From Owenia fusiformis (taxonomy: Eukaryota > Annelida > Polychaeta > Sabellida > Oweniidae): a stretch of 64,000 nt of DNA. Within the stretch, counting starts at the first letter, position 1. Every line of letters begins with the position of its first letter. A program made the position numbers and the translations under genes. Where the stretch lies: assembly GCA_903813345.2 (NCBI GenBank), contig CAIIXF020000006.1, positions 28,963,936 to 29,027,935 of the forward strand, written 5' to 3'. The notes under the pieces were generated by a model. That model did not search any database. It saw nothing but the letters and a program-made list of their open reading frames with translations, and was not told the origin of the DNA. Below, one piece after another: positions 15,701 through 18,700 of this stretch.

Positions 15701-18700
15701 TCTACCATAATCATATACATATACAAGGGGTGATCAATAAGTATGTGTTATTGTCTGGCTTATACAATATAGTATATGAAGGAAGAAGAAATAATTTGTT
15801 GTGGTGTATCAACAAAGAGCAGTCAATGTCCAAACTTGCAACCCAGTTTACTTAAGATATTGTTTAGAGTAGAGTTTACTTCTTTAAAGGGAAGTCTAGA
15901 TGTAGTTGAAATAGATTCTGTTACGCCTCAACATATGACTCTGGGTGTCAGGTGGCTTGATATTGTAGCGTGCATGTATGCATGTATAACATAATAAAGT
16001 TATGAAATAAATTGGGTTGTGTGAAGATTGATTGACAATTTCTATGAACATCTATTCTAGGTCGTGATGATGCCAAGTCTCATTGTATCCTCTTCTATAG
16101 CTTTAGTGACATTGCCAGACAATCGACCATGGTCTTCACAGAGCAAACAGGCCTCGAGAACCTCTACAAGATGGTTGCATACTGTAACGCTGTTGCAAGG
16201 TATGAGCCATTATGCATGTTCTAAATATACCATAAAGTTACCCAGTTAATATTTGTGTTTAACTTCAAAGTAAATATAGCAAATTCACTCTATTACTTAG
16301 ATATTGCACTTGCTAACTGGGGCACCTTTCACCAGGAGATTTATCATTTAAATGCCATCTATAGGCCATTTTAACTAGCCAACTTGAGTCCTTACACCTG
16401 AAGAGAGTCATCCATCTTTGAATTGCTTTAGCTATCAACAGTTAGGTATCTGCTGATAAAAATACCTTTCTGGGAATGAAGCATGAACTATAAATCAATA
16501 TACAATAAAATCTGCATCCCCAAAGTCAAACACCTCTCACTCACTAATCTGAGTCTTACTAATAGACATGTTATGAAATGTATAACACCTGTCAATCCGA
16601 AGACTTTTAGCTGATCTTTGTGGCGTTTGCATTAGACAGGTTTTACTTTAGATCACAGATGATGTGTATCTGCCTTCCTCTATACACCAAACAAACCAGG
16701 GATTTTGTCATTCCTCAACAGGAATCCTGCTAGTAAAGTAGTATGTACATGTAAAAGAAGGCAGTATAAGTTTGTAATTTATTGTTTGAATGTTTGTTAT
16801 AGATGCAGAAGGTCTATGATAGCTGAACACTTCAATGAGAGCTGGTCTGAGAGTGACTGTAGTGGAATGTGTGATGCTTGTGTTAAACCAGGTAAGGCCC
16901 TTACATGTTAATATGTGATGCTTGTGTTAAACCAGGTAAGGCCCTTACATGTTAATATGTGATGCTTGTGTTAAACCAGGTAAGGCCCTTTCATTTAAAT
17001 GTGTGATGCTTGTGTTAAACCAGGTAAGGCCCTCACATGCTAATGTGTGATGCTTGTGTTAAACCAGGTAAGGCCCTTACATATTAATATGTGATGCTTG
17101 CATTAAAGGAGTTAAGGCCCTTACATGTTTATGTGAGATCCTTGTGTTAAACCAGGTAAGGCCCTCACATGCTAATGTGTGATGCTTGTGTTAAACCAGG
17201 TAAGGCCCTTACATATTAATATGTGATGCTTGCATTAAAGGAGTTAAGGCCCTTACATGTTTATGTGTGATCCTTGTGTTCAACCAGGTAAGGCCCTCAC
17301 ATGCTAATGTGTGATGCTTGTGTTAAACCAGGTAAGGCCCCTTTACATGTTAATGTGTGATGCTTATGTAAAACCAGGTAAGGCCCTTTCATTTAAATGT
17401 GTGATGCTTGTGTTAAACGAGTTCAGGCCCTTACATGTTTATGTGTGATGCTTGTGTTAAACCAGGTAAGTCCCTTACATATTAATATGTGATGCTTGCA
17501 TTAAAGGAGTTAAGGCCCTTACATGTTAATGTGTGATGCTTGTTTTAAACCAGGTAAGGCCCTTACATGTTAATGTGTGATGATTGTGTTAAACCAGGTA
17601 ACGCCCTTACATGTTAATGTGTGATGATTGTGTTAAACCAGGTAAGGCCCCTTACATGTTAATGTGTGATGATTGTGTTAAACCAGGTAACGCCCTTACA
17701 TGTTTATGTGTGATGCTTGTGTTAAACCAGGTAAGTCCCTTACATATTAATATGTGATGCTTGCATTAAAGGAGTTCAGGCCCTTACATGTTTATGTGTG
17801 ATGCTTGTGTTAAACCAGGTAAGTCCCTTACATATTAATATGTGATGCTTGCATTAAAGGAGTTAAGGCCCTTACATGTTTATGTGTGATCCTTGTGTTA
17901 AACCAGGTAAGGCCCTCACATGCTAATGTGTGATGCTTGTGTTAAACCAGGTAAGGCCCTTACATGTTAATGTGTGATGCTTATGTAAAACCAGGTAAGG
18001 CCCTTACATGTTAATGTGTGATGCTTATGTAAAACCAGGTAAGGCCCTCACATATTAATGTGTGATGCTTATGTAAAACCAGGTAAGGCCCTCACATATT
18101 AATGTGTGATGCTTATGTAAAACCAGGTAAGGCCCTCACATATTAATGTGTGATGCTTATGTAAAACCAGGTAAGGCCCTCATATATTAATGTGTGATGG
18201 TTGTATTAAACAAGGTAATGCCTTCATATCTTTCCATGTATGTGTGCTGTTTGTGTATGTTAATTAGGGGTGGGACGGATAACCGAAATACCGAAAAACC
18301 GCGGTTCATAGCCTTCGGATCGGTTTTCGGATCACGGCCCTACTTTCGGATCAGCTTTTCGGATCGTTTTCGGATTAATATTTCATTGGTCAAGTATCAA
18401 TGAAACAGTTAAAAACACTGTTTTACAGCAACATTTTTGATATTCCTAGTCCCTACCTTGTCTGTCTTGTCTGTTGCTAGCTCACTCGTTTACTAGATTC
18501 GTTTCGTATCCGCGTATTCGTATCCCTCGGTAATCAATCATGTGGTCCCTGGTACTATATTCTTTAGTCGTGTATTCTAAATAATATGTATTGTTCATGA
18601 AATACTAAAACATAAAATTCCATCTATAAAATATAAATTTGCGCAAATCTATGTATCAATTAAGCAGCTAATCATGTCAATCAAAACAAATCCTTAAAAT

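What the first reader, a model, noticed from the sequence alone, without database searches (positions are those of the whole stretch)
16803..18230. About 30 tandem copies of an exon end plus its 5' splice site in RECQL
The 44-bp repeat unit includes the last 21 nt of exon 10 (coding CDACVKP, with two of the four zinc ligands) plus the donor and the first about 20 nt of the intron. The true donor is CCAG/GTAAGG at 16,891. About 25 of the downstream units keep CAGGTAAGG or a close variant, giving a ladder of strong decoy donors over 1.3 kb. Using any later donor would retain the in-frame TAA at 16,909-16,911 and so truncate the helicase at its zinc-binding motif. Either the first donor is always favoured or the array tunes RECQL output through nonsense-mediated decay. 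Ordered variant units (about 132-bp super-units) show expansion in steps.
Basis: partly seen in the sequence, partly recalled or inferred. Interest (0 to 1): 0.82.

Follow-up and report, generated by a model that had tools for sequence, protein, structure and literature searches.

The report
Splice-junction minisatellite in an animal RECQL
A DNA-repair gene carries about 30 tandem copies of the end of one exon with its splice signal, one of many such "echoes" of exon edges in this animal's genome; they are probably harmless because splicing seems to take the innermost signal, and they offer a natural test of how cells choose between identical splice sites.

Summary
The array is real. A 44-bp unit (22 nt of a RECQL exon end, donor CAG|GTAAGG, about 20 nt of intron) recurs 30.8 times over window 16,866-18,222; 24 of 30 downstream units keep a GT donor, 21 at full strength. 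RECQL is otherwise intact (11 exons, one frame), and any later donor would retain the TAA at 16,909.

It is not special to RECQL. Of 40 other donor-bearing arrays read in this genome, 27 begin inside a coding exon end by my unblinded reading. WRN-like and BLM-like genes have donor arrays; RECQL4-like and BLM-like genes have acceptor arrays. Amphioxus has such arrays, called "mirages", reported not to disturb splicing. I file this as a new member of that kind, in a genome unlike amphioxus.

Best mechanism: neutral tandem duplication across an exon edge, silenced by exon definition choosing the innermost splice sites. NMD regulation is not supported: periods show no frame preference (11/10/9 mod 3 in 30 arrays) and decoy donors are not specially conserved. 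Arrays seem enriched at genuine exon ends over chance motifs, though one of four measures was not significant. No RNA data were available.

The parts
16803..16891 (+). RECQL exon encoding the end of the RecQ zinc-binding motif (...[11 protein letters not shown]); authentic 5' splice site after 16,891
   Evidence: Pfam RecQ_Zn_bind 3.1e-7; PDB helicase Q1 chains; frame continuous with the next exon
16866..18222 (+). 44-bp x 30.8 minisatellite; the first unit is the exon end plus donor, later units are intronic if the first donor is used
   Evidence: TRF; unit decomposition; no other locus matched in the genome
16889..16897 (+). authentic donor CAG|GTAAGG
   Evidence: U1 duplex -11.5 kcal/mol, the strongest of the ten RECQL donors computed
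16909..16911 (+). in-frame TAA, retained if any later donor is used
   Evidence: sequence; translated for donors 2-5, 7 and 8
16933..18222 (+). ladder of 24 downstream GT donors (21 CAGGTAAGG or CAGGTAAGT) and 6 donor-dead units
18265..18783 (.). 519-bp insertion with 14-bp terminal inverted repeats (13 of 14 match) and an 8-bp target-site duplication ATGTTAAT that matches array-unit sequence; hAT-like by these marks, inserted into the decayed 3' end of the array
   Evidence: the hAT label is recalled
18784..18809 (+). remnant of an array unit beyond the insertion
   Evidence: sequence read by eye
19246..19394 (+). next RECQL exon ([12 protein letters not shown]...), with acceptor TATAG|G
13892..14210 (+). 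second RECQL array, 54 bp x 5.9 with 100% matches, starting after the first 6 nt of the intron that follows exon 13,719-13,885; contains no exon sequence
12161..21383 (+). RECQL model: 12161-12340, 13027-13332, 13719-13885, 14569-14650, 14976-15124, 15571-15688, 16061-16199, 16803-16891, 19246-19394, 19862-19985, 20848-21383
   Evidence: one open frame with a terminal stop

Best explanation
This is a minisatellite born by tandem duplication of a short segment that straddled the 3' edge of a RECQL exon, then grown by slippage or unequal exchange in steps of one to several units. It is a 'mirage': an exon-intron boundary echoed into the intron. It is most likely inert. The spliceosome defines the exon by its innermost pair of splice sites (upstream acceptor at 16,802 and the first donor after it, an 89-nt exon), so the equally strong later donors, which would make exons of 133, 177 and more nt, lose. 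The same innermost-pair rule fits the acceptor arrays in the RECQL4-like and BLM-like genes, where by my reading the true acceptor is the last copy. Shown: the anatomy, the recurrence across genes, the lack of frame preference, the lack of extra donor conservation. Inferred: which donor is used, the exon-definition rule, neutrality, the way the array grew.
For: Anatomy. The gene is intact and needs the first donor. Recurrence: 27 of 40 other donor arrays start in a coding exon end (reading not blind), 12 of those 27 with a Pfam match at E<0.001; PDB matches for PP2A B56, DNAH2, XPNPEP3. BLM-like 97 bp x 9.9 donor and 131 bp x 2.6 acceptor arrays; WRN-like 57 bp x 29.8 donor array; RECQL4-like 88 bp x 7.0 acceptor array. 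Period mod 3 = 11/10/9 in 30 arrays, p=0.90. Donor columns vary as much as the rest of the RECQL unit (ratio 1.02), and are no better kept in 18 anchored than in 4 unanchored arrays. In amphioxus, RT-PCR suggested such arrays do not interfere with splicing (PMC3087553 passages; PMC3902484 passage).
Against: No RNA evidence from this organism. Classical test substrates often favour the downstream (intron-proximal) copy when donors are duplicated (recalled; PMC5585400 passages say SRSF1 promotes the intron-proximal and hnRNP A1 the intron-distal site). Long exons such as that of L013 (open for 182 codons upstream) are harder to place under exon definition. Neutrality is argued from absence of signal in modest samples. 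Enrichment at real junctions, if true, is not explained by random seeding.
Confidence: 0.76

Rival explanations
1. The ladder tunes RECQL: a share of transcripts uses later donors, retains the TAA and is destroyed by NMD; array length sets the share.
For: 21 downstream donors are as strong as the true one; they are stronger than 8 of the other 9 RECQL donors and about level with the ninth (-11.2 kcal/mol); donors 2-5, 7 and 8 all lead to the TAA.
Against: The same structure stands at many unrelated genes; 7 of 30 arrays would give in-frame open insertions; no preferential conservation of decoys.
Confidence: 0.08
2. Self-repair by stepwise splicing: each intact unit ends in CAG|GT, so a unit can act as acceptor and donor; errors are removed by re-splicing inside the array, as in intron gain by tandem duplication of AGGT or in recursive splicing.
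For: Every GT-bearing unit has AG|GT; tandem duplication of AGGT is described as a genuine route of intron gain (PMC3443670 passages); L013 units end in T-rich stretches (sequence).
Against: The RECQL unit has a poor pyrimidine tract (GTGTTAAACCAG); one 44-nt unit is short for an intron (recalled); acceptor strength was not scored.
Confidence: 0.08
3. The copies help: clustered U1 sites just inside the intron recruit U1 and strengthen exon recognition.
For: Apparent enrichment of arrays at genuine exon ends by three of four measures.
Against: Decoy donors are no better conserved in anchored than in unanchored arrays (only 4 unanchored); acceptor arrays exist too.
Confidence: 0.05
4. Assembly artefact (false expansion).
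For: Arrays are error-prone; reads could not be checked; a published amphioxus case appeared aberrantly assembled in the draft (PMC3087553).
Against: 21 distinct units of 30, a nested transposon-like insertion, and many independent arrays.
Confidence: 0.03

Closest known systems
Mirages of amphioxus: minisatellite-like tandem duplications of exon-intron boundaries (Adh3, globin BflGb6 and BflGb9, troponin C; similar repeats in PGBD5)
   Same: Tandem units spanning a splice junction; both 5' and 3' boundaries; many units keep AG/GT; published units 10-160 bp (PMC3087553 and PMC3902484 passages).
   Different: Up to about 90 copies (L099) against 6 and 3 in the two BflGb6 haplotypes; found here in dozens of arrays by genome-wide search; genome with about 35% GC and 12 large sequences, unlike amphioxus as I recall it; no transcript data here.
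Intron gain by tandem genomic duplication (AGGT duplication model)
   Same: Tandem duplication of AG|GT creates new potential donors and acceptors (PMC3443670 passages).
   Different: Here an existing intron is lengthened; no new intron is shown.
Recursive splicing at ratchet points (juxtaposed acceptor and donor)
   Same: Intact units have CAG|GTAAGG, formally a ratchet-point core.
   Different: Weak pyrimidine tract, 44-nt spacing, 2.35-kb intron; no intermediates known here (literature seen only as listing and abstract starts).
Ordinary intronic minisatellites/VNTRs
   Same: Stepwise growth and block duplication; length variation expected.
   Different: The first unit is constrained coding sequence with the authentic splice site.

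Membership tests
mirage (exon-intron boundary minisatellite) | tandem repeat unit spans an exon-intron boundary | tested here: met
mirage (exon-intron boundary minisatellite) | authentic boundary at the edge of the array, other copies intronic | tested here: met
   first unit is the exon end; the gene frame continues from that donor and meets a stop from the later donors translated
mirage (exon-intron boundary minisatellite) | both 5' and 3' boundaries can be affected in the genome | tested here: met
   donor arrays in RECQL, BLM-like, WRN-like genes; acceptor arrays in BLM-like, RECQL4-like genes
mirage (exon-intron boundary minisatellite) | does not disturb normal splicing | not testable with these tools
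   no RNA data
mirage (exon-intron boundary minisatellite) | copy number unstable between alleles | not tested
   only one copy of the locus found in the assembly
recursive-splicing ratchet point | pyrimidine tract and branch point upstream of AG|GT | tested here: inconclusive
   read by eye only: GTGTTAAACCAG is a weak tract; not scored
NMD switch (poison exon extension) | alternative donor leads to a premature stop | tested here: met
   TAA at 16,909-16,911 for donors 2-5, 7 and 8; later donors would retain the same TAA by position
NMD switch (poison exon extension) | alternative donor is used and its use is regulated | not testable with these tools
   no RNA data

The most novel reading that the evidence does not exclude
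In this animal, exon-intron junctions are preferred birth or survival sites of tandem arrays: hundreds of genes may carry donor or acceptor ladders, because some step linked to splicing or transcription at exon edges promotes tandem duplication there, while exon definition makes the products invisible to selection.
Probability: 0.3. Interest if true: 0.78.

Novelty: new member of a known kind. Interest (0 to 1): 0.6.

Why it matters
How the spliceosome chooses among identical 5' splice sites is an old question, usually asked with a few engineered copies. Here nature offers tens of introns with several to about 90 copies of an exon's own donor, plus acceptor arrays, in one genome. Ordinary RNA-seq would show whether the innermost site wins. 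If exon-edge arrays are pervasive outside amphioxus, they are also raw material for intron lengthening and intron gain, and a trap for gene annotation.

Tried and rejected
Codon log-odds classifier trained on RECQL alone: poor. It gave low scores to exons with strong protein matches (PP2A B56 1.7, XPNPEP3 1.5), and its array-versus-control contrast was not significant (16 of 40 vs 11 of 50 at 2.6, p=0.053; 9 vs 7 at 3.5, p=0.22; 5 vs 4 at 5.2, p=0.36; rank test p=0.063). Reversed-pattern control for MAGGTRAGT (20,044 vs 23,062): not a fair control, because the two words differ in composition expectation (about 14.7k vs 24-27k). Papers on junction-spanning repeats: searches gave nothing apt in what I looked at; led to the mirage paper. 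PMC2812944 (tandem repeats modifying human gene structure, listed) was seen only in the listing; PMC12783039 (intronic minisatellites of earthworm metallothionein genes) only in passages. Identity of the organism: 12 large sequences and 498 Mb resemble Owenia fusiformis (505.8 Mb, 12 chromosome-scale scaffolds, PMC9977687 passage), but this was not tested; a hemerythrin search found no match, which shows little. A 719-aa open frame at 25,599-27,755 (-) has no Pfam match at E<=0.001.

Rows dropped or unread: one search listed about 100 of 339 rows and one search listed 100 of 115, so arrays beyond the lists were not read. C3:7460328 was not fetched because it resembles L015. Of 59 rows, 9 were left out of the control (6 of one C7 array, 2 duplicates on C1, 1 unit of the L036 array). 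The RECQL array is not counted among the 40. L040 was left out of the frame count of 30. In that count no second donor was found within 2 nt of the expected place for L013 and L039, and for L029 the nearest GT is not the unit's donor; with nominal periods my hand count is 10/10/10. In the conservation test L100 was fitted as a 59-bp dimer.

Full report
What is there. Window 16,866-18,222 is a 44-bp tandem array of 30.8 copies. Its first unit is the end of a coding exon, TGT GAT GCT TGT GTT AAA CCA G (22 nt), followed by the donor GTAAGG and intron. The exon matches RecQ helicase Q1 in the PDB and Pfam RecQ_Zn_bind, and it joins ten further exons of window 12,161-21,383 into a single 679-codon frame with one terminal stop (a first try with loose boundaries failed, and one search lacked one exon). 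So RECQL looks functional and the authentic donor is the first one. Of 31 donor columns, 25 keep GT, 22 of them as CAGGTAAGG or CAGGTAAGT, the true one included. In duplex energy with the U1 5' end these (-11.5 and -11.6 kcal/mol) beat eight of the other nine RECQL donors (-4.5 to -7.5) and roughly equal the ninth (-11.2). Use of donors 2-5, 7 or 8 reaches the TAA at 16,909-16,911, and later donors would retain the same TAA. The six donor-dead units are one related type (GAGTTAAGG or GAGTTCAGG). Units are 88% alike on average and 21 of 30 are distinct; blocks of two to four units recur at 97% or more. A 519-bp insertion with inverted repeats and an 8-bp target duplication sits in the decayed 3' end, so the array predates it.

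It is not a RECQL oddity. A search for RecQ proteins showed a gene, BLM-like by recalled motifs, whose exon end (...VSQWGHDFR|) and donor are repeated 9.9 times at 97 bp, and whose next exon has a 131-bp x 2.6 array over its acceptor. A WRN-like gene carries its exon end (...KMEQYLTTTQCRR|) and donor CAG|GTCAGG at 57 bp x 29.8 (the alignment to WRN is weak on its own, E=0.18). A RECQL4-like gene has an 88-bp x 7.0 array over an acceptor, the last copy leading into the full exon (PDB helicase Q4 8e-19). The RecQ-like gene on C2 showed no array that I could place at an exon edge in the 5.5 kb fetched.

Genome-wide reading. Patterns with three successive donor words about 20-50 bp apart gave these row counts, forward plus reverse against the word read backwards: CAGGTAAG 339 vs 63, CAGGTAAGT 81 vs 53, CAGGTAAGG 23 vs 0, CAGGTGAGT 115 vs 12, AAGGTAAGT 56 vs 53. 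One array gives many rows, and two of the five controls are nearly as large as the search, so tandem arrays as such are common here and row counts alone prove little. I read the 5' ends of 40 arrays (L008-L047). By reading, 27 of 40 start inside a coding exon end; in 2 of 40 (L008, L019) the first array donor lies 54 and 87 nt after an exon's donor; 11 of 40 show no exon. This reading was not blind. L011 and several others have no protein match, and L040 counts only because its early units look degenerate. Pfam matches at E<0.001 support 12 of the 27: M24 peptidase, dynein N1, kringle, Il2rg-like, B56, Rieske, BTB, C2, ERAP1_C, UDPG dehydrogenase, I-set, CRIPT. PDB matches support PP2A B56, DNAH2 and XPNPEP3. 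A further exon-end array in L098 (Rab-like by motif) turned up in the control search. Names resting on motif alone are recalled and untested.

Is that more than random seeding? MAGGTRAGT occurs 20,044 times, against about 14,700 expected from the window's composition, so roughly a quarter may be real donors. In an independent sample of 50 non-array sites I read 11 as clear exon ends and at most 15. Contrast by reading: 27 of 40 vs 12 of 50 (p=4e-5) or vs 15 of 50 (p=4e-4). Mechanical tests: longest open stretch, rank test p=0.0023, and 18 of 40 vs 11 of 50 at 60 aa or more, p=0.018. Pfam on the longest open stretch: 12 of 40 (34 scanned) vs 4 of 50 (35 scanned), p=0.007; leaving out L008, whose match is an exon upstream of the array, 11 of 40, p=0.014 (the tool lists families, and I collapsed overlapping ones to proteins). 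The codon score did not reach significance at any threshold. I read this as probable enrichment, not proof; gene density is not controlled.

Does the ladder act? If later donors were used, arrays should favour lengths divisible by three, or, for NMD, in-frame stops. Over 30 exon-anchored donor arrays (26 of the 27, plus RECQL, BLM-like, WRN-like and L098) the period mod 3 is 11/10/9 (p=0.90). Use of the second donor would give an open in-frame insertion in 7, a stop in 17 and a frameshift without a stop in the retained unit in 6. In 18 anchored arrays the donor columns vary 0.75 times as much as the rest (median; 12 of 18 below 1), and in 4 unanchored ones 0.51 times (4 of 4 below 1); most were chosen for intact donors, so low ratios are partly my selection. 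In RECQL the ratio is 1.02. Nothing here points to selection for or against the decoys.

Mechanism. The rule 'innermost pair wins' (exon definition) explains why the first donor and, in acceptor arrays, the last acceptor would stay in use. It is inferred. [quoted passage not shown] PMC3902484, one passage). The original Adh3 paper is not held.

Placement. RECQL's array meets the structural features of a mirage; splicing effect and allelic instability were not testable or not tested. In the listings, all of an open-access subset and mostly seen as titles and abstract starts, I saw no report of mirages outside lancelets.

Noticed in passing
window 13,892-14,210: A 54-bp x 5.9 array with 100% matches begins at intron position +7 after another RECQL exon; with the 16-bp array at 14,706 (56 nt after an exon end) it hints that arrays cluster at the 5' ends of introns here.
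   Followed up: partly
window 18,265-18,783: 519-bp hAT-like insertion with an 8-bp target duplication inside the decayed array end.
   Followed up: yes
L122 5571-6188 (C3:31839070-31839687): RECQL4-like gene with an 88-bp x 7.0 acceptor array: the 3' splice site and exon start are repeated, and the last copy leads into the full exon.
   Followed up: yes
L121, reverse-strand orientation 6305-8001 (C7): WRN-like gene with a 57-bp x 29.8 donor array running to the end of the fetched piece; a search for its donor word found 29 copies spaced 56-57 bp, with one gap of 114.
   Followed up: partly
L098 (C7:15783300-15785100): Exon end reading ...IQLWDTAGQER|GTAAGT repeated at 45 bp, probably a Rab-type GTPase by motif (recalled); turned up in the control search.
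   Followed up: partly
L099 (C1:53780500-53785000): About 90 copies of a 48-bp exon-end unit; the first retained unit would read through in frame, although some units are 47 bp.
   Followed up: partly
window 25,599-27,755 (-): 719-aa open frame without a Pfam match at E<=0.001.
   Followed up: partly
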